From: Ochrobactrum sp. CM-21-5
Lineage (GTDB): Bacteria; Pseudomonadota; Alphaproteobacteria; Rhizobiales; Rhizobiaceae
Length of the DNA stretch: 64,000 bases
Assembly: GCF_014253075.1 (NCBI RefSeq)
Contig: NZ_JACLZJ010000001.1
Span: forward strand, 682,001-746,000
Direction of reading: 5' to 3'
The notes beneath the pieces were generated by a model that had not been told where the DNA came from, ran no database searches, and saw nothing but the letters and a program-made list of their open reading frames with translations. Position 1 is the first letter of the stretch. Each line of letters opens with the position of its first letter. This document shows, in pieces, positions 19,081 to 49,493 of the stretch. The position numbers were made by a program, and so were the translations under genes.

Positions 19081-19094
19081 AACGAACCGCGGCC

Positions 19095-34259: not shown

Positions 34260-34283
34260 TGACCGTTGATATTTGATCGAACG

Positions 34284-34317
34284 AAGCGGAGCCCTTGCGG
34301 CTCCGCTTTGTTTTTTT
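34284..34317 (+). terminator. Intrinsic terminator of mscL
   Basis: AAGCGGAGCC pairs with GGCTCCGCTT across CTTGC, followed by TGTTTTTTT. Confidence 0.92.
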
Positions 34318-34426
34318 GACCTATAAATCTACTTGATCGGATCATCACAAAATGCCGCGTGATTTCGTCTTGCTGGCTTGATAAGCACAATCGACGAACC
34401 AGACAGAAGCATTGCGGGGGGAAACC

Positions 34427-35596
34427 ATGACACTCGTAGCCAGCCTTCGCCGGGAAGCGGCTCAATCACCGGAAAGCGGCATCGTTGCCGTTGCCAATCA
34501 CGGACGCGGACGGGAGGGCCTGATTCCGCTCTGGGTGGGCGAGGGCGATCTGCCCACGCCGGATTTCATCCGCGAGGCGGCGCACAAGGGTATCGCGGAT
34601 GGCGAGACCTTCTATACCTGGCAAGCGGGCATTCCGGAATTGCGTGACGCGCTGGCCCGCTATCACGCGCGCCACTTTCCCCTGCCGCTGAAACCGGAAA
34701 ATTTCTATGTCACCGGTTCCGGTATGCATGCCATCGAAATGGCGCTGAAGGCGACGACGGGTGCCGGGGAAGAAGCGATCTATCTCTCGCCCGCCTGGCC
34801 GAATTTTGTTGGCGCAGCCGGGTTGGCAGGTGCGGTTCCCGTGCCGGTGGAGCTGGAGTTCGGCGCCAATGGCTGGATGCTCGACCCCGAGAAAATTGCC
34901 AGCGCCATCACGCCGCGCACGCGTGCGCTCTTCATCAATACGCCGTCCAACCCGACAGGCTGGACAGCGGACAGAGAGACGCTGCGCTTCATTCTTGATC
35001 TTGCGCGTAAAGATGGACTCTGGATCATCGCCGACGAGATTTACACGCATTTCTACTATGGCGGCGGTCGGGCGCCATCCTTCATGGATATCATGGAGCC
35101 GGACGACCGTATCATTTTCGTCAATTCCTTCTCCAAGAATTGGGCGATGACCGGCTGGCGGGTCGGCTGGATGACGGTGCATCCCTCGCTCGGACCCGTG
35201 ATTGAAAATCTGATCCAGTATTCCAATTCCGGCGTGGCACAGTTCATGCAGCGCGGTGCGATTGCGGCGCTCGATCAGGGTGACCCCTTCATCGCCATGC
35301 AGGTCGAGCGCGCACGCTCCACGCGCGACCGCTTGTGCGCGGCACTGCAATCGACAGGCAAAGTGCGCCTGACGCCGCCACAGGGCGCATTCTATCTTTT
35401 CTTCGGCGTCGACGGTGTGACGGATTCCGTGAAAGCGGCCATCGATATGGTCGATAATGCCAATGTCGGCCTTGCCCCCGGCAGCGCGTTCGGTGGAGAG
35501 GCGTTCTTCCGGCTCTGCTTCTGCCGAGATCCGGCGCACGTGGATGAAGCCGCGCAGCGGCTTGTGCGCTGGATCGACAAGCTGACGGCAAAATAA
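34427..35596 (+). CDS. PLP-dependent class I/II aminotransferase
   Basis: A 389-residue fold-type I aminotransferase of the aspartate aminotransferase superfamily. PLP-site motifs are VTGSGMHAIEMALKA, NTPSNPTGWTADRE, IIADEIYTHFYY and the lysine in NSFSKNWAMTGWRVGWM. The C-terminal arginine block is RLCFCRDP. The ATG at 34427 follows GGGGGGA. It is monocistronic, between the mscL terminator and a bidirectional terminator shared with hemA. Substrate specificity is not readable from sequence; aspartate or aromatic/branched substrates are possible. Confidence 0.9.
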   Translation: MTLVASLRREAAQSPESGIVAVANHGRGREGLIPLWVGEGDLPTPDFIREAAHKGIADGETFYTWQAGIPELRDALARYHARHFPLPLKPENFYVTGSGMHAIEMALKATTGAGEEAIYLSPAWPNFVGAAGLAGAVPVPVELEFGANGWMLDPEKIASAITPRTRALFINTPSNPTGWTADRETLRFILDLARKDGLWIIADEIYTHFYYGGGRAPSFMDIMEPDDRIIFVNSFSKNWAMTGWRVGWMTVHPSLGPVIENLIQYSNSGVAQFMQRGAIAALDQGDPFIAMQVERARSTRDRLCAALQSTGKVRLTPPQGAFYLFFGVDGVTDSVKAAIDMVDNANVGLAPGSAFGGEAFFRLCFCRDPAHVDEAAQRLVRWIDKLTAK

Positions 35597-35625
35597 AAAA
35601 GGCCGGTGAAAACCGGCCTTTATTT
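35597..35625. terminator. Bidirectional intrinsic terminator
   Basis: AAGGCCGGT and ACCGGCCTT with a four-base loop, with A-run and T-rich flanks. It separates the converging aminotransferase and hemA genes. Confidence 0.9.
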
Positions 35626-35639
35626 CGTCGTGCTGGGGA

Positions 35640-36917
35640 TCAGCCGCCAGCCTTGGAAACCATTAGGGGAATCACGCGGCTGGAACCCGTGGCCTGTGGC
35701 GCAACCGGTTCGGCGAACGGAATGCCAAGCGTATCCCACACTTCCAGCAGCGCATCCTTCAGGCCGTCGATCAGCGCGTCGTCATGAAGCGGCGTCGGCG
35801 TGATACGCAGGCGTTCCGTGCCACGCGGTACGGTCGGGTAATTGATCGGCTGGATATAGATGCCGTGCACTTCAAGCAGGCGGTCGCTGGCTTTCTTGCA
35901 AAGCTCCGGATCGCCGACAAGTACCGGTACGATATGGGTTTCGGACGGCATGACCGGGAAGCCGGCGGCTGACAGCACGTCCTTGGTGTGCTGGGCCTGC
36001 CGCTGCTGACCGTCACGCTCCACCTGCGAAGTTTTCAGATGGCGGATCGCAGCCGTCGCCGCCGCAGCCACTGCCGGTGGCAACGAGGTCGTGAAGATGA
36101 AGCCCGGCGCATAGGAGCGCACGGCATCGATAATCGCGCGCGAGCCGGTGATATAGCCGCCGAGAGCGCCGAATGCCTTGGCAAGCGTGCCTTCGATAAT
36201 GTCGATGCGGTGGGCAAGGCCGTCCCGTTCGGTAATGCCGCCGCCGCGCGCGCCATACATGCCGACCGCATGAACCTCGTCGATATAGGTCATGGCGTTA
36301 TACTTGTCGGCCAGATCGGCGATCTTTTCGATAGGTGCGGTATCGCCATCCATCGAGTAAACGGATTCAAAGACGATCAGCTTGGCGCGGGAGCGATCCG
36401 CTGCTTTCAAAAGCTGTTCCAGATGTTCGACGTCATTGTGACGGAAAATCTTCTTTTCCGCGCCCGAGCGGCGCACGCCTTCGATCATCGAGGCATGGTT
36501 CAGCTCGTCGGAAAGGATGAGGCAGTCCGGCAGCAGGCGCGCTATGGTCGAGATCGACGCTTCGTTGGAGACGAAACCGGAGGTGAAAACAAGACCGGCC
36601 TCCTTGCCATGCAAGTCGGCCAGTTCGGCCTCCAGCTCCACGAGCGGATGATTGTTGCCGGAAATGTTGCGCGTGCCGCCAGCGCCGGAGCCTGCTCTGC
36701 CAGCCGTGTCGCACATGGCCTTGATCACATCGTGATGGTGCCCCATGCCGAGATAGTCGTTGGAACACCAGACCGTGATTTCACGGGTGGTGTCGTTGTT
36801 ACGCCAGATAGCTCGGGGGAAACGTCCGACAATACGCTCAAGATTGGCAAAAACGCGGTACCGCTTCTCGGCGTGCAGCTGGTCGATCGCTTCCTCAAAA
36901 AAACGGCGATAGTCCAT
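35640..36917 (-). CDS. hemA: 5-aminolevulinate synthase
   Basis: A 425-residue PLP enzyme of the Shemin route, condensing glycine and succinyl-CoA to start heme synthesis, as is normal in alphaproteobacteria. It starts [17 protein letters not shown], has [24 protein letters not shown]-type glycine-rich block near [19 protein letters not shown], and the PLP lysine in [13 protein letters not shown]. The ATG at 36917 follows AAGGAGCG. An FNR/FixK-type box about 100 bp upstream suggests oxygen control, as known for hemA in relatives. The gene is read alone to the terminator at 35597. Confidence 0.96.
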
Positions 36918-37011
36918 AATGCGCTCCTTGGTCTCAAGCTTAACTAGCGCTTTTGGCTCGCGGCGTCCATGGCGCAATGGCGGGCAATTTGCCACGCTTT
37001 TGTGAAGCTGC

Positions 37012-37056
37012 ATTGATTGGAATCAATGGAATCAATGGAATCAATGGAATAAAGGG
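37012..37056. repeat. 9-bp tandem repeat (AATCAATGG) next to the FNR box
   Basis: Three exact units AATCAATGG (37021-37047) are flanked by degenerate units on each side; the first degenerate unit is the left half of the FNR box. Each unit regenerates an ATCAA half-site. Copy number could vary by slippage, a potential strain marker. Confidence 0.85.
37013..37026. promoter_or_regulatory. FNR/FixK-type box upstream of hemA
   Basis: TTGATTGGAATCAA is an exact match to the FNR-family consensus TTGAT-N4-ATCAA. Centred at about 37019.5, it would sit at -41.5 for a start near 36978, leaving a 60-base leader before hemA. FnrN, FnrL and FixK proteins activate hemA in other alphaproteobacteria. Confidence 0.75.
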
Positions 37057-37089
37057 CAATTCCATCAAGGCAGAATGGCAATTCATCGT

Positions 37090-37791
37090 TCAGCGTGTCG
37101 TCAGGCGTATCAGGAATTTGGGCCATGGGTCGCGCCGTCTGACATAGACACGCGGTATGCCAAACGGATCGTCAGTCGCCCGCGCCCGCGCGCGAACTGT
37201 TGTTGTTGCAGTTTCGAAACCGGCTTCCCGCACCATGTCGCGATGAACCGGACCGTTATCACCATAGGGGTAGCAGAAATTGGTTACTTCTGCCCCTAGC
37301 ATATCTTCCAGAACGGTCTTCGATTGGGCGATCTGCCGCCGGGCTTCCTCGTCCGGCGTTTGGGTAAGGTGCACATGGTCGAGCGTATGCGCGCCGACTT
37401 CATGACCCAACGCGGCCCATTCGCGCAATTGCGCAACCGACATGCAGGGTGTTTTCGGCACGCCGTGCGGCTGATCCCAGACATTGCTGCCGCCAACCTG
37501 ATTGGCCACGAAATAATTCGTCGCCGTAAAGCCATATTCGGCAAGCACGGGCGCTGCGTTTTCCAGCACATTCAAAAATCCATCATCGAAGGTGATGACG
37601 GCGATTTTACCGGTTTTCTCGCCCCGGATATAGGGCATGGCGTTCCGCAGCGAGAGACCCTGATAACCGGTCCTCTTCAGCCAATTCATCTGGCTGCGGA
37701 ACCGGTTCGGATGAACCAGCAAGCCGCGAAATGGCATGTTTTTCGTGGGGAGTGGGGCAATCTGATGATACAAAAGAATAGGTACTGGCAT
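37090..37791 (-). CDS. Polysaccharide deacetylase (NodB/CE4 family)
   Basis: A 233-residue CE4 enzyme. It starts MPVPILLYHQIAPLP, the usual first motif; VITFDDGFLN supplies the catalytic and metal aspartates and VGAHTLDHVHL the metal histidines, followed by NFCYPYGDNG. No signal peptide is seen, so it may act on an intracellular sugar. It follows the GT25 gene by seven bases, forming an operon of sugar enzymes separate from the 3-13 kb locus. Confidence 0.9.
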   Translation of the reverse strand: MPVPILLYHQIAPLPTKNMPFRGLLVHPNRFRSQMNWLKRTGYQGLSLRNAMPYIRGEKTGKIAVITFDDGFLNVLENAAPVLAEYGFTATNYFVANQVGGSNVWDQPHGVPKTPCMSVAQLREWAALGHEVGAHTLDHVHLTQTPDEEARRQIAQSKTVLEDMLGAEVTNFCYPYGDNGPVHRDMVREAGFETATTTVRARARATDDPFGIPRVYVRRRDPWPKFLIRLTTR

Positions 37792-37798
37792 AGCTTTT

Positions 37799-38524
37799 TC
37801 ACTTTGATCTTGATGAAAAGGCGCGCACGCGCATCCGGTAGAGCGGACGCAGGATTTCGCGTGCGAGCTTGTCTGAAAATGATTTTTTATGCTGGATTGT
37901 CGTGCCGCCGAGTTCGGATGAAATTTCCTTCACACCACCCGGTATTACCGACAAGGGCCGTACGCCGGTAACCCAGCGCATCTGGACGGTCGTATCGACA
38001 GGCCGGTCGAACCGTCCCGTCACGGCAAGCAGTTTTTTCGCTGCGTCGTACGATACGAGCTGCGCCACCATGCCAAGCCCGATCGGGTTGGGAATGATAA
38101 TGCGCGTATTGTCGTTGCGAAACACTTCGCGCCCATGCTCGCGGTCATCGCGGAAAGTAAAGCGGATGAACCCGCCTGGCTCCAGATGGTTCACAGCGGC
38201 CTGAAACGCTTTTTCGAAAGTATTAGTCAGGGCAATGTCGTCCTCGACGATAAATCCGGCGTCGAGCTTTTGATCCACGATGGCCTGCCACGCCTTACGA
38301 TGGGACATGAAACAGGCGATTTCGTTTTTGCTGAGTGCGAACGGATAGCGCGGTGCATGAAGATGGCGCTTGTAGACATGCGCGATCTCGTCGTCTTTCA
38401 GTGCACGGCTGTCCACCGCCTGCAGGATCTCCGTCTTGACCGGAAGTGCACGGGCAAGCTTGTCAACCTGTGGGCGGCGGTCGACCGCGCGTTCAAGGTG
38501 GATGATGAAGGCCTTGATGTTCAT
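37799..38524 (-). CDS. Glycosyltransferase family 25 (LPS-type)
   Basis: A 241-residue GT25 enzyme, a family that adds galactose or glucose to lipooligosaccharide cores. It starts MNIKAFIIHLERAVDRR, the family's opening motif, followed by PYPFALSKNEIACFMSHRKAW-type sequence near residues 76-97 and GFIVEDDIALTNTFEKAF with the metal-binding acidic residues. The ATG at 38524 fits the family N-terminus; the ribosome site is weak. It is coupled with the deacetylase seven bases downstream, and a GT29-like gene lies upstream on the same strand. It probably decorates lipopolysaccharide core; the acceptor is unknown. Confidence 0.88.
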   Translation of the reverse strand: MNIKAFIIHLERAVDRRPQVDKLARALPVKTEILQAVDSRALKDDEIAHVYKRHLHAPRYPFALSKNEIACFMSHRKAWQAIVDQKLDAGFIVEDDIALTNTFEKAFQAAVNHLEPGGFIRFTFRDDREHGREVFRNDNTRIIIPNPIGLGMVAQLVSYDAAKKLLAVTGRFDRPVDTTVQMRWVTGVRPLSVIPGGVKEISSELGGTTIQHKKSFSDKLAREILRPLYRMRVRAFSSRSK

Positions 38525-38772
38525 AGGAATCCAAACGTCAGATGGCACGGATCGTCTGTTGTATGCCTTATCTTCCGGCATTGAGCAAATGGTTGAATAT
38601 TGGTCAGTATTCCGAATTCAAAATATGTTCGATTTCCGCAATCCTGTCGCGTCGGCGGCTCGGTCTTTCCCCAATTATACTATAGATATAAGTCAGGAGC
38701 ATGGGTGTAACTTCATCCAGAGGAAGTGCTGCGCAGCATAGGTGAAACCGTCAGCAGGATTATGGCGAGATT

Positions 38773-39387
38773 CTATAAAATTGCGTTGATCGAGCCATCA
38801 TTGATCTTCCGCTCGATCCAGCGTTTTTCGGCAGGCCAGTCATGGCGTTTCCAGCCCTCCCAGCTGAAGCCGCAAATTTCCACGTTCCATTCCGTCTGCG
38901 GGAAATCCCGCAAGGCCAGCCATATGCCGATGAAGCCGGTACTCGGAAAAACCTTTTTCATGTCACTTGCGCCAATGCCAAGTTCCTCGCAGACATCGAA
39001 ATAAAGCTGTGGCGGCATGATGCGGATTTCCTTGCCGGCCATGCCCAGAACTTCGATGGCTTTCAACGTCCAATCGGCCCTGCGGCCCTTGATGCGTGAG
39101 AGCAGGTTGGGCCGGGGGTGAAAGCGCCGGATGATGCTGGGGTGAAATGCGAACAGAACCGCGGGTGCGTTGCTGAAGATCGCAGATCTCAGGAATGCTG
39201 GATCGGCGAGCCACTGCTGCATCTGCTTGCTGGATGTCGCCAGCATCAGCAGGTCGGTCTTCGTGCCGCTCATGCCTATGGAGTTGCGCGGTTCATTGAA
39301 ACGTACCACAAAATCGGCGCTATCGATCTCCTTCGACAGGTCGCGAGGCAGGGGACCGTTTCCGACGATGAAAATTGTCTTCTTCAT
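38773..39387 (-). CDS. GT29-like (sialyltransferase-fold) glycosyltransferase
   Basis: A 204-residue protein. The start IFIVGNGPLPRDLSKEIDSADFVVRFNEP resembles the GT29 sialylmotif L pattern (GNG followed by Asp and VVRFN). PSTGFIGIWLALRDFP resembles motif S (STG with a small residue run), and a downstream GFSWEGW-H pattern fits the later motifs. Related bacterial proteins are sometimes labelled urease operon accessory proteins, for which I see no support here. It lies 249 bp upstream of the GT25 gene on the same strand and may belong to the same surface-glycan module. Donor and acceptor are unknown; sialic acid is not implied. Confidence 0.65.
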   Translation of the reverse strand: MKKTIFIVGNGPLPRDLSKEIDSADFVVRFNEPRNSIGMSGTKTDLLMLATSSKQMQQWLADPAFLRSAIFSNAPAVLFAFHPSIIRRFHPRPNLLSRIKGRRADWTLKAIEVLGMAGKEIRIMPPQLYFDVCEELGIGASDMKKVFPSTGFIGIWLALRDFPQTEWNVEICGFSWEGWKRHDWPAEKRWIERKINDGSINAIL

Positions 39388-39614
39388 TCAAGTGGCTTTG
39401 CGTGGACTGAGAGGCGGCGGCTTTTGCCGTCATTCGATATTCTCAGAACTCGTCTAGCCGGAATCTGCGTTATGTTAAAGTGCGGACATATTTATAACGG
39501 GAAATATAATACGAATGGTTTTGCCGGGCTTTGCAACGCAAGCACGCATATGCTGTGCCGCATGCGACGAAGACGCCGAAGGCACAGCTTTCATTCTGGC
39601 CGAGCTTTGGGACG

Positions 39615-39800
39615 TCAGACCTCACCGGGTTTCTTGAAGCGAATATGAATATTGTCGTTCGCGAGATCGAAACCGGCATAATTGCGCTGAAAGGCGATGA
39701 GCGCGTCGTTCACGCCCTTCGAAAAATCGTCGTCCTGCACATCGATATGGTGCCGGTAGAGTATCCGGTCGTCTTTGTAGAATATTACCTGACCTTCCAT
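39615..39800 (-). CDS. Small conserved-looking protein of unknown function
   Basis: A 61-residue protein starting MEGQVIFYKDDRILYRHHID. A very strong ribosome site AGGAGG precedes two consecutive ATG codons; the second (39800) has the better five-base spacing. The composition is ordinary (acidic and aromatic residues, VQDDDFSKGVNDALIAFQRNY) and codon use looks like that of its neighbours, which supports translation. I do not recognise a family. It stands between the GT29-like gene and the LysR regulator. Confidence 0.6.
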   Translation of the reverse strand: MEGQVIFYKDDRILYRHHIDVQDDDFSKGVNDALIAFQRNYAGFDLANDNIHIRFKKPGEV

Positions 39801-39916
39801 CATAGCCTCCTTTTATAACGGATGAGCCCTGTGGCTGACATGGCGCCGGATATGGTGTCGGACGGGCGCGCGCTCAGTCGGTATATTCATTTGAGATAGG
39901 CGATGGCCCCGGCGTT

Positions 39917-40807
39917 TCAAGATCGTTCGGGAGATGTTTTACCACTGCTCAGAGCAAGCCAGGCCCGCGCTGCATGCGAGAGAAAAGCGCCTTTGCGCCA
40001 GATCAGGGCCATGTGCCAGTTCACCTCGGCACCTTTGATCCTTCGAATGCGTACGCCTTGATGATGACGCTGCTCGGCGATCATCTGCGGCAGAAAACCA
40101 ATGCCCATACCGGCTGCGACCAGTTCCACGATGAAATCGATCTGGCTGGAGCGAACCGCCACATTTGGCGTAAACCCGCGCTGGCGGCAGGCTTCCAGAA
40201 TGATGTGATTGAGCGCAAAGCCGCTTTCGAACAGGATAAAGGGCAGGCGCGCTATGTCCTGCAAGCCGATGTCATCGCTGCTTGCAATCTCATGATTTGC
40301 CGGAAGCAGGGCGACCACCGGTTCGCAGCGCACATCCTGCCATTCGAAACTGTCGGCCACCGGCAATAGCGAGGCCGCCAGTTCCACGTCGCCCGCAAGC
40401 AGAAGTTCCTCCAGCCGCTTGCTGCCGTGCTCGACAAGCTGAATGTCGATTTCGGGATAAAGGCTTGTATAAGCTGCAAAAACCGGCGCGAACAGCACAC
40501 TGGAACCGATGGGCGGCAGGCCGAGCCGCAACAGTCCTCGCTTCAATCCGCGCAGCTCGTCCAGTTCCGCCAGCATGTCATCCTTTTGCGCCAGCGCGGC
40601 CAGCGCCCGGCGATAGACGATCTCGCCGGCGGCAGTCAGACGGGGCGGGGAGACCTCGCGGTCGAGAAGGGTGATCCCCAACTCGTCCTCAAGCTGCTTC
40701 ACCGCCTTGCTGACGGTCGACTGGGTTGCATTGATGGTTCTGGCAGCGGCGGAAAACCCGCCCTGCCGCACCACTTCCACAAATGCCTGAAAACTGCGCA
40801 AGTTCAT
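39917..40807 (-). CDS. LysR family regulator (CidR-like)
   Basis: A 296-residue LysR-type regulator. The N-terminal helix-turn-helix is FVEVVRQGGFSAAARTINATQSTVSKAVKQLEDELG, followed by the effector-binding domain typical of the family. It is divergent from lrgA/lrgB with 122 bp between, and two ATTC-N7-GAAT boxes lie in that gap. CidR in Gram-positive bacteria similarly controls cid/lrg genes in response to overflow metabolites, so regulation of the neighbours and of itself is the simplest inference. Confidence 0.92.
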   Translation of the reverse strand: MNLRSFQAFVEVVRQGGFSAAARTINATQSTVSKAVKQLEDELGITLLDREVSPPRLTAAGEIVYRRALAALAQKDDMLAELDELRGLKRGLLRLGLPPIGSSVLFAPVFAAYTSLYPEIDIQLVEHGSKRLEELLLAGDVELAASLLPVADSFEWQDVRCEPVVALLPANHEIASSDDIGLQDIARLPFILFESGFALNHIILEACRQRGFTPNVAVRSSQIDFIVELVAAGMGIGFLPQMIAEQRHHQGVRIRRIKGAEVNWHMALIWRKGAFLSHAARAWLALSSGKTSPERS

Positions 40808-40812
40808 GAGCT

Positions 40813-40858
40813 ATTCTATATTCGAATAGCTGCAATGAAATCAATTCATTTCTAGAAT
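40813..40858. promoter_or_regulatory. Two LysR-type boxes (ATTC-N7-GAAT)
   Basis: Box 1 is ATTC at 40813-40816 and GAAT at 40824-40827, extended to AGCTATTC/GAATAGCT arms. Box 2 is ATTC at 40844-40847 and GAAT at 40855-40858. Both satisfy T-N11-A and are centred 31 bp apart, about three helical turns. They lie just before the LysR gene start and 70-115 bp before lrgA. Confidence 0.75.
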
Positions 40859-40929
40859 AGAGCGCGAAGGCCTATATTACTCCTTGAAAACAAACAGAAT
40901 CCCTTACGGGTTCGCATTGGAACAAAGAT

Positions 40930-41349
40930 ATGAACGCCCCCGCCATCATCCGCAGCCTGCCGATCCGCTTTCGTCATGCGCTGCATAACAGCCGTCTGAT
41001 GCAGATTGCGACGCTGGTTGGTTTCTGGCTGGCTGGCGAAGGTGTCGTGCGACTGATCGGCTTGCCCCTGCCGGGCGGAATTGTCGGAATGGCGCTGGTT
41101 CTGGGGCTGCTGCTGAGCGGTCGCATCCGGCTTGTCAGCATGAAGCGTGGTGCGGAATGGTTCCTGGCGGAGATGCTGCTTTTCTTTGTACCCGCAGTTC
41201 TGGCCATCCTTGAGCACCGCGAGCTGGTGGGTATGCTTGGCCTGAAAATCATGGCGGTCATTCTGCTTGGTACGCTGACGGTGATGAGCGTTACCGCATT
41301 GACGGTGGACCTCTGTTATCGCTGGAGTCTGCGTTATGCTGCCAAATAA
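40930..41349 (+). CDS. CidA/LrgA family holin-like membrane protein
   Basis: A 139-residue membrane protein with four hydrophobic segments; LPLPGGIVGMALVLGLLL is the family signature, followed by GAEWFLAEMLLFFVPAVLAI. CidA/LrgA proteins act with LrgB in cell-envelope turnover, and more recently are linked to transport of small overflow metabolites such as pyruvate. It overlaps the lrgB-type gene by 14 bp and is divergent from the LysR gene that probably controls it. Confidence 0.9.
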   Translation: MNAPAIIRSLPIRFRHALHNSRLMQIATLVGFWLAGEGVVRLIGLPLPGGIVGMALVLGLLLSGRIRLVSMKRGAEWFLAEMLLFFVPAVLAILEHRELVGMLGLKIMAVILLGTLTVMSVTALTVDLCYRWSLRYAAK

Positions 41350-42043
41350 CCTCCTTGCCAGCCCGTTTATAGCGACACTGTTCTGGTCAGCCGCTACGAT
41401 CCTGCTTTATCTTGCTGCAAAGCGCGTTTACCGCCGTTTTCCGATGTGGTGGCTGACCCCACTCGCTGTCACGCCGCTCTTGCTTATGGCGCTGGTAATC
41501 GGCCTCAATGAAAACTATCGCGGTTATTTCAGCGCGACCCACTGGCTGGTGGCTCTGCTTGGCCCGGCGACAGTGGCCTTTGCCATTCCTATCTATCAGC
41601 AGCGCGCCACGATCCGTCGCTACTGGCCGGTTCTTCTGGCGGGCGTCATGGTCGGCAGCTCGGCAGCAATGGCATCTGCCTGGGGGCTTGCGCATCTCAT
41701 GGGCCTCAACGAGGCGATCAGCCTGAGCCTGATGCCGCGTTCAATGAGTACGCCTTTTGCAATGACGGTCTCCGGCGACATTGGCGGCACGCCGGATCTC
41801 ACGGCCATCTTCGTGGTGCTGACCGGCGTTTTTGGCGCGGCTCTGGGCGAACTCATGTTGAACTGGCTGCCACTTCGGTCCACCCTGGCGCGCGGTGCGC
41901 TGTTCGGCATGGGCGCGCACGGTGCGGGCGTGGCCAAGGCGCATCAGATCGGCAGCGAGGAAGGCTCGATTGCCGGGCTGGTGATGGTGCTGGTCGGCCT
42001 TGTGAATGTGCTTGCCGCGCCATTGATCGCGCATCTCCTGTAA
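41336..42043 (+). CDS. LrgB family membrane protein
   Basis: A 235-residue LrgB/CidB partner with about seven hydrophobic segments. Signature segments are SLMPRSMSTPFAMTVSGDIGGTPDLTAIFVVLTGVFGA and GALFGMGAHGAGVAKAHQIGSEEGSIAGLVMVL. It overlaps lrgA and forms with it a two-gene membrane system. A weak hairpin (CCCC..GGGG followed by TTTTAT, about 42077-42100) follows and may be its terminator. Confidence 0.93.
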   Translation: MLPNNLLASPFIATLFWSAATILLYLAAKRVYRRFPMWWLTPLAVTPLLLMALVIGLNENYRGYFSATHWLVALLGPATVAFAIPIYQQRATIRRYWPVLLAGVMVGSSAAMASAWGLAHLMGLNEAISLSLMPRSMSTPFAMTVSGDIGGTPDLTAIFVVLTGVFGAALGELMLNWLPLRSTLARGALFGMGAHGAGVAKAHQIGSEEGSIAGLVMVLVGLVNVLAAPLIAHLL

Positions 42044-42165
42044 GCTTTTGTTTTTGCGGTAAAATATGCAGAAAGACCCCATATCCGGGGTGCCTTTTAT
42101 CGTGTCGGATTCCGCTATTTTCCAAGCGTGACCTTATTTGCATAACAGATATGCATTATTGGCCG

Positions 42166-42194
42166 TTGATGGTTAAAAGGGGGGCGGCTAGATA
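42166..42194 (+). promoter_or_regulatory. Promoter of the alpha-r14-like small RNA
   Basis: TTGATG (42166-42171), exactly 17 bp, then TAGATA (42189-42194). It places the transcription start near 42201, the first base of hairpin 1. Confidence 0.7.
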
Positions 42195-42200
42195 TTCAGT

Positions 42201-42312
42201 CATCGAGTTCACCTCCTCCTCCCAGAACTCGATACGGAATACGGCACTCCTCCTCCCAAGCCGTATTCAAGATCAGGCCGCGCATCCTCCTCCCGCGCGG
42301 CCTTTTTCTTTT
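42201..42312 (+). ncRNA. Small RNA with three anti-Shine-Dalgarno hairpins (alpha-r14/NfeR1-like)
   Basis: Three perfect hairpins follow one another, each with a CCTCCTCCC loop: stem ATCGAGTT/AACTCGAT (42202-42233), AATACGGC/GCCGTATT (42238-42267) and AGGCCGCGC/GCGCGGCCT (42275-42303). The third is followed by TTTTTCTTTTT and acts as terminator. A well-spaced promoter lies directly upstream. The architecture of about 110 bases with repeated anti-Shine-Dalgarno loops matches the alpha-r14 family of trans-acting RNAs known in Sinorhizobium (NfeR1) and relatives including Brucella. It would pair with ribosome sites of many mRNAs, including transporter genes. Confidence 0.85.
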
Positions 42313-42469
42313 TCAGGACAGTTTCAGCCAAATTCGTCGCGGCTCCAGCCATCGTCCGGGCACATTCTCGGTTCCCATGTTCCCATTTTCGTTGACAATG
42401 CGTCACCATCTGGCTGCAGGCAGCCCCATAGGCAACACGCGCTTTCCACCCTATTTCTGATGCAGTTTG

Positions 42470-42568
42470 GAGCACATCCCGAAAAGTGCGAAGCGGTTTT
42501 CGGACAAGATGCGCGTTAAAATAAACAGTTGGAGCGTCGATCTGATTAAATCAGGTCGACGCTCTATA
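42470..42568. repeat. Composite rhizobial palindromic repeat
   Basis: First part: CCGAAAA-N11-TTTTCGG within GAGCACATCC...GATGCGC (about 42471-42514). Second part: GAGCGTCGATCTGATT paired with AATCAGGTCGACGCTC at 15 of 16 positions (42532-42564). This pair of hairpins is a recurrent intergenic element of Rhizobiales. It lies immediately upstream of the VOC/esterase gene and may lie in its leader. Confidence 0.8.
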
Positions 42569-42585
42569 ACGGAGAGACCGCGATC

Positions 42586-44151
42586 ATGACGAATGATGTT
42601 TCGAGCGGCATTCATCACCTCACGCTGATCACGCGCAAGGTGCAGGCCAATGTCGATTTTTATACCGGCTTCCTCGGCCTGCGCCTCGTCAAGCAGACAG
42701 GCGGTTTCGAGGATGCCGAACAACTGCACCTCTTTTACGGTGATCGATCCGGCACGCCGGGTTCCCTCATTACGTTTCTTGTCTGGGAAGACGGTGCAAG
42801 AGGGCGCGTCGGCCACGGTCAGGTAAGCGAAATCGCGCTTGCGATTGACCGCGCCGCGATCGGCTTCTGGCTGGAAAGGGCGCTGCGTTATCACGTGTCG
42901 TCCGAAGGCCCGGTCCAGGAATTCGGTGAGCCGGTTCTGCGCCTGCGCGACCCGGACGGTGTGATCGTCAAGCTGGTCGGCAGCGATCTGTTTGCCGGCG
43001 ATGTCTGGGCAGGCGAGGGAATCCCCGTCGAGTATGCGGTGCGCCGCGTGCGTTCGGCGACCATTCTCTCCGAGACGCCCGAGCAGACGATCGATTTCAT
43101 CGAGCGTTATTTCGGCTTCCGGCGTTCAGCGAAGGAAGGCGTGATTGACCGTCTTGTGTCGCAATCGGGCGATGCCATAGATGTGCGCGATGCAACGGGT
43201 TTCTGGCCGGGCATTCCCGGCACAGGTATCGCCGATCACGTCGCCTTTCGCGCTGCTGATACGGAGGGATTCGCCCGCGTGGAAAAAGAGCTGTCGAAGC
43301 TCAATTCCAGCGAGGTCAATGTGCATGACCGCAAATATTTCGCTTCGCTTTATGTGCGTGAGCCGGGCGGGACCCTGTTCGAGCTTGCAACCGATGGGCC
43401 GGGCTTCACCGTTGACGAGCCCGTCGAAAAGCTTGGTGAAACCCTGTTCGTGCCACCGGGTAACGAGGAGAAGGCAGATGCGATCCGTGCAAGAATGCCG
43501 CAATTCTCGCGTCCCGGCGAAGAGCGGGTGATCTATCGCGATCTGCCTTTCGTGCATCGCATCCATAAGCCGGAAAATCCGGATGGCAGCACATTGGTGC
43601 TGCTGCACGGCACTGGTGGCAACGAAAATGATCTCATGCCGCTGGCCAGCATGGTTGCACCGCACGCCACGCTTTTGGGCGTGCGGGGGCGAAGCATCGA
43701 GGAGGGCATTCAGCGCTGGTTCCGCCGTTTCGATCTGAAGCGTTTCGATCAGAAGGACATCCGCTTTGAAGCAGAAGCGTTCCAGGCTTTTGTGAAAGAT
43801 GCAGTTCCAGCTTATGGTCTGGACCCGGCCCGAACCGCTTTTCTTGGCTTTTCCAATGGGGCCAACATGCTGGGGGCCTTCATGCGGCTGCATCCGCATA
43901 TCGTACGCAAGGCCGTCTTGCTGCGTGCAAGCGAAGTGCTGGAAGAGTCGCCGGTTGCGGATCTCTCGGATGCTTCCGTCCTGCTGTTGAACGGTGCGAA
44001 CGATCCGTTCGGCGATGCATCGGGTGCACTGGAGAAGGCCCTGCGTGGAGGTGGCGCGGATCTGGATATTCGCACTATGAATGCGGGACATGGCCTCATC
44101 GCGGAGGACATGCAGGCTGTCCGCCAATGGCTGGACGAAAAACTCATGTGA
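42586..44151 (+). CDS. Fusion of ring-cleaving VOC dioxygenase (MhqO-like) and esterase (MhqD-like)
   Basis: A 521-residue fusion. Residues 1 to about 310 contain two glyoxalase/VOC modules: GIHHLTLITRKVQANVDFYTGFLGLRLVKQT, with metal-type His and Glu, and a second with DHVAFRAAD and LYVREPGGTLFELATDGPGF. Residues about 325-521 form an alpha/beta hydrolase with LVLLHGTGGNENDL, the nucleophile elbow GFSNGANM, and aspartate/histidine in NGANDPFGD and NAGHGL. In Bacillus, MhqO and MhqD are separate proteins of methylhydroquinone and catechol detoxification. Here the two activities are in one chain. The ATG follows GGAGAG. A terminator separates it from a convergent MhqO paralogue. Confidence 0.88.
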   Translation: MTNDVSSGIHHLTLITRKVQANVDFYTGFLGLRLVKQTGGFEDAEQLHLFYGDRSGTPGSLITFLVWEDGARGRVGHGQVSEIALAIDRAAIGFWLERALRYHVSSEGPVQEFGEPVLRLRDPDGVIVKLVGSDLFAGDVWAGEGIPVEYAVRRVRSATILSETPEQTIDFIERYFGFRRSAKEGVIDRLVSQSGDAIDVRDATGFWPGIPGTGIADHVAFRAADTEGFARVEKELSKLNSSEVNVHDRKYFASLYVREPGGTLFELATDGPGFTVDEPVEKLGETLFVPPGNEEKADAIRARMPQFSRPGEERVIYRDLPFVHRIHKPENPDGSTLVLLHGTGGNENDLMPLASMVAPHATLLGVRGRSIEEGIQRWFRRFDLKRFDQKDIRFEAEAFQAFVKDAVPAYGLDPARTAFLGFSNGANMLGAFMRLHPHIVRKAVLLRASEVLEESPVADLSDASVLLLNGANDPFGDASGALEKALRGGGADLDIRTMNAGHGLIAEDMQAVRQWLDEKLM

Positions 44152-44162
44152 ACACGGATAAC

Positions 44163-44197
44163 AAAAGAGCTGCCGGGTTTCTCCGGCAGCTCTTTTT
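44163..44197. terminator. Bidirectional intrinsic terminator
   Basis: AGAGCTGCCGG and CCGGCAGCTCT with a six-base loop, flanked by A-run and TTTTT. It serves both converging VOC genes. Confidence 0.92.
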
Positions 44198-44201
44198 CAG
44201 T

Positions 44202-45155
44202 TCAGTCAAGCGGCTTCAGGTCTCGTTCGATGGCCTCGCGCCTGCCTTCAAGAAATGGCGGAAGCGACAGGCGTTCGCCGAGACTTTCCAACGGCTCGTC
44301 CACATCAAAGCCCGGACCGTCTGTTGCGATCTCGAACAGGATGCCGTTTGGCTCGCGGAAATAGAGCGAGCGGAAGTAGTACCGTTCGACCTCGCCGCTG
44401 GATGGCACGCGCAGGCCGCGCAGGCGTTCCACCCATTCCTGCATGCTTTCCTGATCCGGCGTCCGGAAGGCGACATGGTGCACCGCGCCTGCACCTTGCC
44501 CTGCAGGCGAAAGGTTCGGCTGCACGGCCACATGCAGTTCGGCGGCCGGGCCGCCCTGTCCCATGGAAAAGACATGCACATGACCTTCGCCATCGGGCGA
44601 GATATAATCACCCGTCTGGCGCATGTTCATCACCTTCTCAAGCACGATCTGTGTGGGTGCCAGATCGGGAACGCTCATCGTGATCGGTCCAAGCCCGCGT
44701 ATCTGCCTGTCGGCGGGAATGGGACTTCTGTCCCAGCTATGCGCTTTGCCCGCGCCGCCGTCGTCGGTCAGCCGCAGGCGCTGGCCTTCCGGATCTTCGA
44801 AATCGAGAACCGCGCGGCCAGCCACTTCGAAGATGTCGCCGGTCTTGACGCCTTTTTCATTGAGATGCTTGCGCCACCAGTCCAGGTTTTCAACACCGTT
44901 CACGCGGAGTCCGGTTCTGCTGACGCTGTGCGTGCCGCGCCGTTCGCGCTGCACTGGCCAATCGAAAAACGTGATGTCGGTGCCGGGCGATGCCAGGCCG
45001 TCCGCATAGAACAGATGATAGGCGCTGGTGTCGTCCTGATTGACTGTTTTTTTAACAAGTCGAAGCCCGAGCGTGTCGGTGTAGAAACGCCGGTTGCCGG
45101 GCGCATCGGCGGTGATGGCCGTCAGATGGTGCAGGCCTGTGAGTTCCAATGCCAT
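44202..45155 (-). CDS. Ring-cleaving VOC dioxygenase (MhqO-like)
   Basis: A 317-residue protein with two VOC modules: [37 protein letters not shown] at the start and HHVAFRTPD with [25 protein letters not shown] in the second half. The metal-binding His/Glu pattern is retained, and the C-terminal [20 protein letters not shown] matches MhqO proteins. It should cleave hydroquinone- or catechol-type rings using iron. The ATG at 45155 follows GGGAGGAAT. It is clearly related to the N-terminal half of the converging fusion gene, suggesting duplication with one copy fused. Confidence 0.9.
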
Positions 45156-45369
45156 GGGATTCCTCCCTTTCAAAGGCGAAGTTTGCAGTTGCAGACAATA
45201 TTGGTCGCAAAGCGCACACCGGAAACCCCTGATTGCTGAACAGTGTGTAACCGATAAGCCGCAACTGCGCGATGAATTTGTTCCCATGGACGAATGGGGC
45301 TTGGCAGAAACCCTTGGCTAAAGAATATATTAACCTCGATTTTCCGGCGTAGCGTAGAGGGAGACCGGT

Positions 45370-46614
45370 TTGCGGAGCGTCATTCAAAAAGCTGCCCCTG
45401 CCTTGCTTGTTTTGTTTACCCTCGTTGCGGGCTGCGCCAGCCGTCCGGAAGGCGTGCTTGTTCCTGTCGGTGATATTGCTTCTCCCGGTACGACCAGGGT
45501 TGACCTCGTCGTTGCGACCACGCGTCGGCCATCCGAGAATCCCGGCATTCTTTTCTCGGGCGAGCGCGACCAGCTTGTGTCGCTCAACGAAATCGTCGTG
45601 TCCATCCCGCCGGAAAAGAACCGCAAGGCAGGCGAAGTGCAGTGGCCGAAAAAGCTGCCGCCCAATCCGCAGAGGGATTTTACCACCGTCAGCGTGACGC
45701 CGCTCAAGACCGATGTCGAAATAGCGGGCTGGGTGCGCCCTCATCTCACCAAGAGCCGCCGCGTAATGGTGTTCGTGCACGGCTTCAACAATACGTTTGA
45801 GGATTCCGTCTATCGTTTTGCGCAGATCGTGCACGATTCCGGTGCCGATGTCGCGCCGGTGATTTTCACATGGCCGTCGCGCGCAAGCGTGTTCGATTAC
45901 AATTACGATAAGGAAAGCACCAACTATTCCCGCGATGCGCTGGAGCAGATCCTGCGCGCGATCACCAGAGAGAAGGAGGTCAAGGACATCACCGTCATGG
46001 CCCACTCGATGGGCAGTTGGTTGACGGTCGAGGCATTGCGCCAGATGGCCATTCGCGACGGGCGGGTAAACCCCAAGATCACCGATGTCATTCTTGCCTC
46101 ACCGGATCTGGATGTGGATGTGTTCTCCAAGCAATATCTCGCCATGGGCAAGGAACATCCCCGCTTCACGCTGTTTACCTCGCGTGACGACAAGGCGCTG
46201 GCGATCTCTCGCCGCATTTCGGGAAATATTGACCGCCTCGGCCAGATCGACCCTTCGGTCGAGCCCTATCGTTCCGAACTTGAAAAAGCGGGCATCACGG
46301 TCATCGATCTGACGCAGCTCAAGGCGGGGGACCGGCTCAATCACGGCAAGTTCGCTGCAAGCCCGGAAGTGGTTCAACTCATCGGCAAGCGTCTTGTCGC
46401 AGGCCAGACCATTACTGATTCCCAGATCGGGCTGGGCGACCGGCTTGGCGCTGTCGCCATGGGCACGGCGCAGGGCGTCGGTAGTGCGGCCTCGCTGGTC
46501 GTGAGCGCGCCGATCGCGGTCTTCGATCCGCATACGCGAAGGACCTATGACGAACAGCTTGACCGGTTTGGGCGCGCTGTCGGCAATACGGTGGGCACGG
46601 TTGTCGCGCCATAA
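45370..46614 (+). CDS. Lipoprotein-like alpha/beta hydrolase (DUF900)
   Basis: A 414-residue protein starting TTG with GAGGGAG before it. The N-terminus is a lipoprotein signal (ALLVLFTLVAGC with the lipobox cysteine at residue 22), so it is probably anchored in the envelope. The hydrolase core has VMVFVHGFNNTFEDSVYRFAQ, a nucleophile elbow AHSMGSWLT and ASPDLDVDVF, as in the DUF900 family. The C-terminal region is glycine- and alanine-rich with no known domain. Its substrate is unknown. It precedes panC by 64 bp but appears functionally unrelated. Confidence 0.85.
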   Translation: MRSVIQKAAPALLVLFTLVAGCASRPEGVLVPVGDIASPGTTRVDLVVATTRRPSENPGILFSGERDQLVSLNEIVVSIPPEKNRKAGEVQWPKKLPPNPQRDFTTVSVTPLKTDVEIAGWVRPHLTKSRRVMVFVHGFNNTFEDSVYRFAQIVHDSGADVAPVIFTWPSRASVFDYNYDKESTNYSRDALEQILRAITREKEVKDITVMAHSMGSWLTVEALRQMAIRDGRVNPKITDVILASPDLDVDVFSKQYLAMGKEHPRFTLFTSRDDKALAISRRISGNIDRLGQIDPSVEPYRSELEKAGITVIDLTQLKAGDRLNHGKFAASPEVVQLIGKRLVAGQTITDSQIGLGDRLGAVAMGTAQGVGSAASLVVSAPIAVFDPHTRRTYDEQLDRFGRAVGNTVGTVVAP

Positions 46615-46647
46615 CTGTTGTCATCGCTAATATGACGCTGTAGGAAT

Positions 46648-46675
46648 CGCGGCCAGCTTTGGCCGCGAGGAGGAC
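46648..46675 (+). promoter_or_regulatory. Hairpin abutting the panC ribosome site
   Basis: CGCGGCCA and TGGCCGCG form an 8-bp stem (about 46648-46667) directly followed by AGGAGG. The stem could hold the ribosome site open or occlude it; it may also be a leftover of a terminator without T-run. Confidence 0.5.
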
Positions 46676-46678
46676 CTC

Positions 46679-47548
46679 ATGCAGATTATCCGCACCATCG
46701 AGGAATTGCGTCAGGTTCTGGCTCCTGTGCGGCGTGCGGGCAAGAGCATCGGTTTCGTGCCGACCATGGGCTATCTCCATAAGGGACATTTGGAACTCGT
46801 TCATCGTGCGCTTGCGGAAAATGACGTGACCGTGGTATCGATTTTCGTCAATCCGCTGCAATTCGGCGCGAATGAAGACCTCGAAAAATATCCCCGCGAT
46901 CTGAAACGTGACGCCAGCCTGCTCGACGCGGCAGATGTCGATTACCTGTTCGCTCCTTCGGTTTCCGGCATGTATCCTCGTCCGATGCAGACAGTGGTCG
47001 ATGTGCCGGTGCTCGGCAACCAGATGGAAGGCGAGGCACGCCCCGGTCATTTCGCCGGTGTCGCGACGGTGGTGAGCAAGCTCTTCAATATTGTCGGTGC
47101 TGATGCTGCCTATTTCGGTGAAAAGGATTTCCAGCAGCTCGTCATCATCCGTCGTATGGTGGAAGACATGGCGATCCCGGTGCGCATTGTCGGCGTTGAG
47201 ACCGTGCGCGAGGATGACGGCCTCGCCTGCTCCTCACGCAATGTCTATCTGACGCCTGAACAGCGTGCGGCCGCCGTCATTGTCCCCAAGGCGCTGGACG
47301 AGGCCGAGCGCCTCTATCGTTCCGGTATCGACGACCCGGAAGTGCTTGAAGCCGCAATCCGCGATTTCATAGCCACGGAACCGCTGGCGACGCCCGAAGT
47401 GGTCGCCCTGCGCGACCCTGGCACGCTGGAACGCCTGACACTGGTGCAGGGCCGTCCGGTGCTGGTTGCGCTGTTCGTGCGGCTTGGCAATACGCGCCTT
47501 CTCGACAACCGGGTAATCGCCCATATCGCACAGGAAAAGGCAGCCTGA
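46679..47548 (+). CDS. panC: Pantothenate synthetase
   Basis: A 289-residue enzyme joining pantoate and beta-alanine with ATP. Signatures: [15 protein letters not shown] (HIGH-type), [34 protein letters not shown] and [15 protein letters not shown], then the KMSKS-like [12 protein letters not shown]. It is followed after one base by panB, the usual pair. The ATG follows GAGGAGGACC. Confidence 0.97.
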
Positions 47549-47549
47549 G

Positions 47550-48377
47550 ATGAGTGCGACAGTCAAACAGAAGCGGCTGACGCCCAAGGCTATTTCAGCC
47601 ATGAAGGGCGCGGGGCCGATTGTCAGCCTCACCGCCTATACGACGCCCATCGCGCGTCTGCTCGACCCGCATTGCGATCTTTTGCTGGTGGGGGACTCGC
47701 TCGGCATGGTGCTTTACGGCATGGAGTCCACGCTTGGCGTGACGCTGGACATGATGATCGCGCATGGGCAGGCCGTGATGCGCGGCACGGAAAATGCCTG
47801 CGTGATTGTGGATATGCCGTTTGGGTCCTATCAGGAATCGAAGGAGCAGGCCTTCCGCAACGCCGCTCGCATAATGCAGGAAACCGGCTGCGACGGCGTG
47901 AAGCTCGAAGGCGGCGAGGAAATGGCCGAGACGGTCGCTTTCCTCGTCAAACGCGGCATTCCGGTGTTCGGTCATGTCGGGCTCATGCCGCAGCAGGTCA
48001 ATACGGTCGGCGGGTTTCGCTCGCTCGGACGCGGCGATGAAGAGGCCGGGAAAATCCGCCGGGATGCACAGACTATAGCCGATGCGGGCGCGTTCGCGCT
48101 GGTCATTGAAGGCACGGTGGAGCCGCTGGCGCGGGAGATTACCGCGTCGCTCGATATACCGACGGTGGGCATTGGTGCATCATCGGCTTGCGACGGACAA
48201 ATTCTGGTTTCGGACGATATGCTGGGGCTGTTTCAGGATTTCATGCCGCGTTTCGTGAAGCGCTTTGCGCATCTGGCACCGCAAATCTCGGATGCCGCCA
48301 AAGCCTATGCGCAAGAGGTGCGGACACGCAGCTTTCCAGGGCCCGAGCACGTATTTGGCGCTAAGCCCAAGGACTGA
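47550..48377 (+). CDS. panB: 3-methyl-2-oxobutanoate hydroxymethyltransferase
   Basis: A 275-residue enzyme that makes ketopantoate from 2-oxoisovalerate and methylenetetrahydrofolate. Signatures: [46 protein letters not shown], and [22 protein letters not shown]. It follows panC by one base and shares its transcript. A gap of 87 bp then leads to nrtR. Confidence 0.97.
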
Positions 48378-48464
48378 CCACTGAAAACTGTGGCCGATAA
48401 TGCTGAGCGCCTTGTAATAGTTTATCAATCGCGTTCAATGGCTTTGATCTGATAGGAAGCCATT

Positions 48465-49382
48465 GTGACCGACGATATTGCCCATACCGAACTGATTGCC
48501 GTTCTCGCAGCCGTTACGCGGGAACAGCCGCGCGTCATGACCGTGCGGCAGGGGCAGGAACAGGCATTGCCCTCCGGCCCGTTCGCGACGGAGCACCGCT
48601 CGTTGCAGTCCGGCCTGCGCGCCTGGGTGCAGGCGGAAACGGCGCATCCGCTGGGCTACCTAGAGCAGCTCTATACTTTTGCCGACCGCGACCGCCACCC
48701 GGAGGGTGAGCGTATCATTTCGATCAGCTATCTCGGCCTTGTGCGTGAAGATGAGACGGCCACCGATCAGGCGAGCTGGCGTAGCTGGTACGATTATCTA
48801 CCGTGGGAAGACCACCGGCAGGGCGAGCCGGCGATCATGGAACATCTCAATATTGCACTGCTGGTATGGGCGCATCAGGCCGGTACCGTCGATTTGACGG
48901 CGCAGCGCATGCGCCGCATTGCCTTTGCTTTCGGTTTTGATGGCGAACGCTGGAACGAAGACCTCGCTCTCCAGCGTTATGAGTTGCTCTACGAGGCGGG
49001 GCTGGTTGCGGAAGCGGGCATGAAAGAGGATGAAAACGGGCGGCACATGTTTGCCGATCACCGCCGCATTCTTGCCACAGCCATTGCGCGGCTGCGCGCC
49101 AAGATCAAATATCGCCCGGTTGTCTTTGAACTCATGCCGGAAAGCTTTACGCTGCTCCAGCTGCAGCGCACGGTCGAAGCGCTGGCGGGCTTGCGTCTGC
49201 ACAAGCAGAATTTCCGCCGCCTGATCGAACAGCAGGACCTGGTGGAAGAGACGGGCGAAAGCGATAGCGAAACCGGCGGGCGCCCGGCAAAGCTGTTCCG
49301 TTTCCGCTATTCCATTGTCGAGGAACGTGCCCTTTCCGAGCGCCATCTGGCCGGAGCCAAGCTGCCAATTTCCCGCGATTGA
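48465..49382 (+). CDS. nrtR: NrtR-type Nudix-related transcriptional regulator of NAD synthesis
   Basis: A 305-residue protein with an N-terminal Nudix-like domain (LGYLEQLYTFADRDRHPEGERIISISYLGLVR) and a C-terminal winged helix (FELMPESFTLLQLQRTVEALAGLRLHKQNFRRLI...GRPAKLFRF). NrtR repressors control NAD biosynthesis genes and lose DNA affinity on binding ADP-ribose-type ligands. The gene sits directly upstream of nadABC, with two palindromic boxes in the 111-bp gap, which strongly supports the assignment. The start is GTG at 48465 after AGGAAG. Confidence 0.92.
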   Translation: MTDDIAHTELIAVLAAVTREQPRVMTVRQGQEQALPSGPFATEHRSLQSGLRAWVQAETAHPLGYLEQLYTFADRDRHPEGERIISISYLGLVREDETATDQASWRSWYDYLPWEDHRQGEPAIMEHLNIALLVWAHQAGTVDLTAQRMRRIAFAFGFDGERWNEDLALQRYELLYEAGLVAEAGMKEDENGRHMFADHRRILATAIARLRAKIKYRPVVFELMPESFTLLQLQRTVEALAGLRLHKQNFRRLIEQQDLVEETGESDSETGGRPAKLFRFRYSIVEERALSERHLAGAKLPISRD

Positions 49383-49384
49383 CA

Positions 49385-49438
49385 ATATACTCGAATCGAG
49401 TATATCTTTGCGCAATTAATATACTCATATTGAGTATA
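49385..49438. promoter_or_regulatory. Twin NrtR-type operators upstream of nadA
   Basis: Box 1 (49385-49405) is an ATATACTCGA/TCGAGTATAT palindrome around a single base. Box 2 (49420-49438) is TATACTCA/TGAGTATA around TAT. They share the TATACTC half-site, are centred 34 bp apart, and sit 55-110 bp before the nadA start. Confidence 0.88.
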
Positions 49439-49493
49439 ATCAGGACTTTCCCGAAAAGGCGGGACCGCTCCTGTTGCGGCTCGGGAGATCGCC

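What the first reader, a model, noticed from the sequence alone, without database searches (positions are those of the whole stretch)
42166..42312. Three-hairpin small RNA with repeated anti-Shine-Dalgarno loops and a matching promoter
Three successive perfect hairpins each display CCTCCTCCC in the loop; the last is a terminator with a T-run, and TTGATG-17-TAGATA sits exactly where a promoter should be. The layout matches the alpha-r14 (NfeR1) RNA family of Rhizobiales. The three stems differ in sequence while the loops are conserved, so selection is on the loops. Its position between lrgAB and the quinone-detoxification genes is worth testing for local as well as global targets.
Basis: partly seen in the sequence, partly recalled or inferred. 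Interest (0 to 1): 0.72.

Follow-up and report, generated by a model that had tools for sequence, protein, structure and literature searches.

The report
NfeR1-type anti-Shine-Dalgarno small RNA
The stretch encodes a predicted small regulatory RNA of a known family whose three loops could each block ribosome-binding sites; the less expected part is that nearly all related copies surveyed, including those behind small DUF1127 genes, carry the same putative switch site upstream.

Summary
Window 42200-42308 (+) encodes a predicted 109-nt RNA of three perfect 9-bp hairpins, each showing CCTCCTCCC unpaired, the last with a T-run. It passes the Rfam ar14 cut-off (78.3 vs 58.8 bits), is one of five such copies in the genome, and follows lrgB in 23 of 49 lrgB loci. 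It is a new member of a known sRNA kind (NfeR1). That box sits at a fixed place before 37 of 41 distinct free-standing ar14 copies and before the DUF1127 gene in 27 of 27 DUF1127-linked copies surveyed, against 0 in shifted control windows, though the loose box alone is common (14 in this window). Genes whose ribosome site matches the loops are mostly uptake genes (7 of 9, against 1 of 22 controls). Most likely a VtlR/LsrB-controlled translational repressor of uptake genes, sharing targets with paralogues and AbcR. Targeting of lrgAB is not supported. No transcript, binding or silencing was tested.

The parts
42137..42158 (.). Conserved palindromic element TTTGCATAACAGATATGCATTA, putative VtlR/LsrB (LysR-type) binding site; core GCAT-N3-TG-N3-T reads on the minus strand, 42154 down to 42142
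   Evidence: the only match in the genome with up to 3 mismatches; box consensus from passages of PMC7486931 and PMC8844928
42166..42171 (+). -35 hexamer TTGATG (inside a conserved CGTTGnTG-like block)
   Evidence: 0.92 mean identity for 42164-42171
42189..42194 (+). -10 hexamer TAGATA, after a 17-nt poorly conserved spacer
   Evidence: 0.81 mean identity against 0.68 for the spacer
42200..42308 (+). ar14 (NfeR1-type) small RNA, predicted about 109 nt; start estimated from the -10 and from the start of the conserved block
   Evidence: RF02344 match 42198-42308; fold
42202..42233 (+). Hairpin 1, 9 bp, anti-Shine-Dalgarno motif 42215-42223
42237..42268 (+). Hairpin 2, 9 bp, anti-Shine-Dalgarno motif 42249-42257
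42275..42303 (+). Hairpin 3, 9 bp, anti-Shine-Dalgarno motif 42286-42294; terminator stem
42303..42312 (+). T-rich tail of the intrinsic terminator
   Evidence: 0.99 mean identity for 42304-42312

Best explanation
It is an ar14-family (NfeR1-type) trans-acting small RNA with its own sigma-70-type promoter. Shown here by sequence: family match, three accessible identical loops, terminator, conserved promoter elements, and an upstream palindrome that fits the published VtlR/LsrB box. Inferred: the LysR-type regulator VtlR/LsrB activates it, and each loop pairs with GGGAGGAGG-like ribosome-binding sites, mostly of nutrient-uptake mRNAs, blocking translation, with the three loops redundant. It acts alongside four paralogues and AbcR RNAs that carry the same loop motif.
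For: RF02344 at 78.3 bits; fold and accessibility; 99.7% of cells paired against 24-40% for slid structures, one compensatory pair; mean identity: palindrome 0.97, -35 0.92, -10 0.81, against spacer 0.68 and outer flanks 0.61-0.64; box in 37 of 41 distinct free-standing ar14 units and 0 of 41 in each of four shifted windows; on an earlier set of 29 units the box scored 24, and among 200 letter-permuted boxes the best other scored 3; in S. meliloti, LsrB activation of NfeR1 and silencing through its loops are experimental (PMC10746234); 7 of 9 genes with GGGAGGAG-N4-9-ATG are uptake components against 1 of 22 genes with AAAGGAGA-N4-8-ATG.
Against: No transcript, start site, protein binding or silencing was measured. 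In S. meliloti only one of six copies was reliably detected by northern (PMC7143759, passages), so this copy may be silent in many conditions. The box alone is loose: 14 matches in this 64-kb window; the argument rests on its fixed position. The window copy fits it on the minus strand only. The stretch 42121-42137 before the palindrome is also fairly conserved (0.82, as much as the -10). Outside the genus the strict box was seen in 3 of 14 free and 2 of 2 'tandem' loci (one of these at -96) and, in a wide window, for 8 of 13 DUF1127-linked loci. The structure count rests on few varying pairs: the measures that count pairs or pair types did not exceed shuffles. The uptake-gene result holds equally for AbcR and the paralogues and assigns no target to this copy; 4 of the 22 control genes had no Pfam match.
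Confidence: 0.8

Rival explanations
1. The RNA is a local regulator acting on its neighbours (lrgAB, glyoxalase/hydrolase genes).
For: It lies downstream of lrgB in 23 of 49 lrgB loci. The glyoxalase-type gene taken to start at 45152 (-) has GGGAGGA-N5-ATG, duplex -14.7 kcal/mol, which would rank second beside the 72 window ORFs compared (many of those ORFs need not be genes).
Against: lrgA -6.3, lrgB -7.2 and the 42586 gene -7.2 kcal/mol, near the median of -6.6; paralogues with the same loops lie elsewhere.
Confidence: 0.1
2. Transcription is controlled by the LysR regulator beside lrgAB (39917-40807, CidR-like) rather than by VtlR/LsrB.
For: It is a LysR-type protein (PF03466, PF00126; CidR model 255.8 bits, below its cut-off of 415), 1.4 kb from the sRNA.
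Against: The same box precedes ar14 copies elsewhere and the AbcR copy that lies next to another LysR gene, and it fits the box published for VtlR/LsrB.
Confidence: 0.12
3. A silent or decaying spare copy: structure kept by recent descent, no function.
For: Only one of six S. meliloti copies was clearly seen by northern (PMC7143759).
Against: RNA and promoter elements are more conserved than spacer and outer flanks in 24 sequences, with one compensatory change.
Confidence: 0.06
4. A general decoy or mimic of the 16S anti-Shine-Dalgarno that lowers translation globally instead of picking targets.
For: The loops contain the CCTCC core of the ribosomal sequence, three per molecule, in several RNAs per genome.
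Against: The loop extends to CCTCCTCCC, and genes matching the extension are mostly uptake genes; NfeR1 silences specific mRNAs.
Confidence: 0.07

Closest known systems
NfeR1 / Smr14C2 / SmelC397 of Sinorhizobium meliloti (alpha-r14, RF02344)
   Same: Three hairpins each with CCUCCUCCC, about 115-123 nt, own sigma-70 promoter, LysR-type site upstream, predicted uptake-gene targets (PMC10746234; PMC8844928; PMC7143759)
   Different: Palindrome here is TGCA-N10-GCAT, not the TGCA-N6-GCAT given for NfeR1; an NtrC site was reported as not evident in Agrobacterium and Brucella homologues and was not tested here; which S. meliloti copy is the orthologue was not determined
SmelA075 / SmelA099 families (PMC3927594: section 2.7 and passages seen)
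   Same: Three or four hairpins with CCUCCUCCC, several copies per genome
   Different: The main text does not mention DUF1127; the parts seen name no regulator
[quoted passage not shown]
   Same: Two paralogues in this genome likewise follow a DUF1127 gene; aSD loops in CcsR are recalled, and PMC3927594 describes them for R. sphaeroides RS0680a
   Different: The window copy is free-standing and has three loops per RNA
AbcR1/AbcR2 (ar15, RF02345)
   Same: Both copies in this genome contain CCTCCTCCC, and one has the same box upstream
   Different: Another family; AbcR binds Hfq in S. meliloti, NfeR1 is Hfq-independent

Membership tests
Rfam RF02344 ar14 (NfeR1 family) | Covariance-model score over the gathering cut-off, full length | tested here: met
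   78.3 bits vs 58.8, model 1-123 of 123
Rfam RF02344 ar14 (NfeR1 family) | Three hairpins, each with an unpaired CCUCCUCCC | tested here: met
Rfam RF02344 ar14 (NfeR1 family) | Intrinsic terminator in hairpin 3 | tested here: met
   9-bp stem and T-run, conserved; not listed by the generic scan, whose loop limit is 8
Rfam RF02344 ar14 (NfeR1 family) | Own sigma-70-type promoter with conserved upstream motif | tested here: met
   comparative footprint; not found by the generic consensus scan; no start site measured
Rfam RF02344 ar14 (NfeR1 family) | Expressed as a transcript of about 110-123 nt | not testable with these tools
   no RNA data on hand
VtlR/LsrB regulon | Box GCAT-N3-TG-N3-T upstream of the promoter | tested here: met
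   minus strand 42154-42142 in the window; most orthologues read GCATAACTGATATGC, which fits on the plus strand; loose pattern, 14 in 64 kb
VtlR/LsrB regulon | Regulator binds the site and changes expression | not testable with these tools
   inferred from published NfeR1 and AbcR work
CcsR-type 3'-UTR RNA | Lies directly behind a DUF1127 gene | tested here: not met
   the window copy follows lrgB and was classed free-standing
ar15 / AbcR | RF02345 match | tested here: not met
   the four places at E up to 1 in the genome do not include the window locus

The most novel reading that the evidence does not exclude
In this genus VtlR/LsrB runs one unified anti-Shine-Dalgarno RNA regulon: an AbcR RNA, the free-standing ar14 RNAs (this one included) and the DUF1127 genes, two types of whose mRNAs carry ar14 RNAs at their 3' ends. 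On this view the DUF1127 'small protein' targets published for VtlR are at least partly sRNA precursors, and free-standing ar14 RNAs are unreported targets. It might help explain why overexpressing the published targets one by one did not restore the vtlR mutant; but the same paper cites that deleting those four genes, singly or together, did not affect virulence in B. abortus, and whether any of those constructs or deletions included the 3' hairpins is unknown to me.
Probability: 0.45. Interest if true: 0.6.

Novelty: new member of a known kind. Interest (0 to 1): 0.4.

Why it matters
The RNA itself is ordinary for this order of bacteria. The useful part is the link it exposes: the published box of a host-interaction regulator sits at a fixed place before nearly every ar14 unit surveyed in the genus, and before the DUF1127 genes that end in ar14 hairpins. 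PMC7486931 left open whether atu1667, a homologue of a VtlR-activated Brucella gene, acts as a small protein or a small RNA (passage); this arrangement makes that kind of question testable in laboratory rhizobia and from published transcriptomes.

Tried and rejected
Rejected: local control of lrgAB; a 3'-UTR RNA of lrgB, since there are conserved promoter elements and a terminator-like hairpin stands at 42076-42091; pairing of loop 2 with the upstream G-run, not conserved. The exact-palindrome search over the order hit 4 of 297 genomes, its mirror control 1: the window, and three similar sequences in other families that I take for coding coincidences, so the strict palindrome is no order-wide marker. 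The AAGGAGGT control pattern (8 matches, 10 in its mirror) was no better than chance and was replaced by AAAGGAGA (28 against 2), so that control was chosen second. Of 13 GGGAGGAG matches four were dropped before the count: L095, L100 and L107 lead into ORFs of 26 codons or fewer, and L099 is the complement of a paralogous ar14. Of 28 AAAGGAGA matches six were dropped: L173, L183, L188, L189 and L195 (ORF under 60 aa) and L192 (same gene as L191). The first DUF1127 box window was too narrow (17 of 26) and was widened (26 of 26) after I saw the boxes at its edge. L082 was wrongly oriented (free, no box) and lost as a false duplicate, because its contig ends early; read singly it is DUF1127-linked with the box, hence 27 of 27. 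L074 belongs to another genus of the family and is one of the four free-standing misses. The protein motif was too strict (0 of 24) and was redone. Recalled, not from a call: that the LysR gene beside the AbcR copy in L087 is VtlR; no NCBIfam model over its cut-off names it (best 25 of 56 shown).

Full report
WHAT IS THERE. Window 42200-42308 (+) holds three 9-bp hairpins with CCTCCTCCC in each loop. The fold has -42.5 kcal/mol against -19.6 +/- 2.8 for shuffles (z -8.2); all three motifs are open. CCTCCTCCC occurs four times in the window, three of them here, against 0.25 expected. Rfam RF02344 (ar14) matches 42198-42308 with 78.3 bits, cut-off 58.8.

COPIES AND DISTRIBUTION. The genome has seven matches at E up to 10, five over the cut-off; at that loose E 9 of 14 control genomes also ring, none over the cut-off. 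Among 60 genomes (the own one and 59 relatives) 45 have a match at E up to 0.001 and 37 exceed the cut-off; each of the 35 of the genus has at least three matches. In a family-wide draw 59 of 61 match at E up to 1e-6 and 56 exceed the cut-off. No control genome rang in these two searches. Of 49 LrgB loci from named genomes, 23 have the RNA behind lrgB; they are labelled Brucella, Ochrobactrum or 'Rhizobiales bacterium'. L030 (Brucella endophytica) lacks it, L053 ends within lrgB, and the other 24, labelled as other groups, show no such cluster of CTCCTCC in the stretch held.

SELECTION. In the window plus 23 orthologues mean column identity is 0.93-1.00 over stems and loops, 0.97 in the palindrome, 0.92 at the -35, 0.81 at the -10, 0.68 in the spacer, 0.82 in 42121-42137, 0.64 further upstream and 0.61 downstream. 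Of 14 distinct RNA sequences 99.7% of cells pair (slid structures 24-40%), with one two-sided change (A-U to G-C, 5 of 14) in hairpin 1. Cells paired, two-sided cells and the covariation score exceed 500 of 500 shuffles; the numbers of two-sided pairs and of pair types do not. Most pairs never vary and say nothing. So stems are kept too; 'selection on the loops' describes paralogues, not orthologues.

PROMOTER AND REGULATOR. Upstream, 42137-42158 is unique in the genome with up to three mismatches. It contains GCAT-N3-TG-N3-T on the minus strand, the box described as confirmed for VtlR in B. abortus and hypothesised in A. tumefaciens (PMC7486931, passages) and matched before abcR1 in S. meliloti and relatives (PMC8844928, passages). 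In S. meliloti LsrB binds a nearby site and activates NfeR1 (PMC10746234: abstract, sections 3, 5 and 8, and part 1 of 2 of section 11). The box is loose, 14 matches in this window, so position matters. I surveyed 77 ar14 units: own 5, the best-hit locus of 29 other genomes (28 of the genus), and 43 in 40 fetched stretches. They are 68 distinct, 67 of them in the genus, of 183 matches counted there (my sum of its column); this is not a random draw. Free-standing: 37 of 41 have the box within -68 to -38 of the match start, 0 of 41 in each of four shifted windows; misses L073, L074 (another genus), L157, L207a. On an earlier set of 29, 24 had it within -66 to -40, 0 in five other windows; 200 permutations of the box letters averaged 0.16, a figure that includes a draw of the box itself, the best other being 3. 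DUF1127-linked: 27 of 27 have the box 225-275 nt before the DUF1127 stop (26, L082), 0 in three shifted windows. Orthologues are not independent, so these are not probabilities. In the family draw (29 loci) 8 of 13 DUF1127-linked (wide window), 3 of 14 free and 2 of 2 'tandem' loci have a strict box (one of the last at -96). Two loci counted as free there (L132, L141) appear by eye to follow a DUF1127 gene that my motif missed, and several free ones show TTGCACTGCACAA-like sites instead.

DUF1127 LINK. Of seven DUF1127 genes in the genome two end in ar14 hairpins and only these two have the box. Over six genomes of the genus, own included, 32 of 40 matches had loci: hairpins and box 13, hairpins without box 0, box without hairpins 4, neither 15 (Fisher p 7e-6, orthologues not independent). 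The four with a box but no hairpins (L230, L231, L237, L238) lie 2.7-2.8 kb upstream of an ar14 copy (coordinates). Three of those four copies were fetched (L071, L084, L085) and are free-standing with the window-type upstream sequence. A DUF1127 gene of that type was found in 10 of 24 lrgB loci and not in window 30001-50000, by a protein motif that may miss some. VtlR activates three DUF1127 genes and AbcR2 in Brucella (PMC12595884, abstract and passages); that these are the same genes is inference. Of the two AbcR copies over the cut-off here, the one beside a LysR gene has the box and the other does not.

TARGETS. GGGAGGAG-N4-9-ATG occurs 13 times in the genome against 4 for the mirror pattern, and exceeds its mirror in each of 34 genomes of the genus. 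That excess alone is expected of any ribosome site: AAAGGAGA gives 28 against 2, and some matches are complements of ar14 genes. Nine of the 13 lead into ORFs of 84 codons or more: five solute-binding proteins, an ABC ATPase, a xanthine/uracil-type permease, PagL and a transglycosylase-associated protein: 7 of 9 uptake. Among 22 genes with AAAGGAGA-N4-8-ATG 1 is an uptake component and 4 have no Pfam match (Fisher p 1e-4). This agrees with NfeR1 predictions but applies to every RNA with this loop. Local genes: lrgA, lrgB and the 42586 gene lie near the median, the glyoxalase-type gene at 45152 (-) does not.

IN PRINT. The family, its loops, its presence in Brucellaceae and LsrB control of NfeR1 are published. 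In the searches run I saw no paper that joins ar14 RNAs with the DUF1127 targets of VtlR/LsrB; one search listed none holding both NfeR1 and DUF1127, and a review of Brucella sRNAs has no word beginning NfeR or ar14 (PMC9751625). Most subscription papers are not held. One, known to me only from a reference entry (a LysR-type regulator controlling numerous small RNAs in A. tumefaciens), may cover part of this.

Noticed in passing
window 19077-19156 (-): SAM_alpha riboswitch (RF00521), 82.2 bits.
   Followed up: no
L230, L231, L237, L238 (about 1.5 kb into each): A third type of DUF1127 gene with the VtlR-type box but no hairpins lies 2.7-2.8 kb upstream of an ar14 copy; found in 10 of 24 lrgB loci, not in window 30001-50000.
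   Followed up: partly
L152, L203, L207: Pairs of ar14 copies about 0.7 kb apart on opposite strands in three fetched relatives.
   Followed up: no
window 42466-42580: Repeat-like and inverted-repeat sequence between the sRNA and the 42586 gene, seen by eye.
   Followed up: no
window 42586-44151 (+): ORF joining a glyoxalase-type and a carboxylesterase-type domain (MhqD-like, 110.7 bits, below the cut-off of 325); 'quinone detoxification' is therefore tentative.
   Followed up: no
window 44202-45152 (-): Glyoxalase-type gene with ribosome site GGGAGGA-N5-ATG, the one good candidate target among the neighbouring genes examined; the start at 45152 was my choice.
   Followed up: partly
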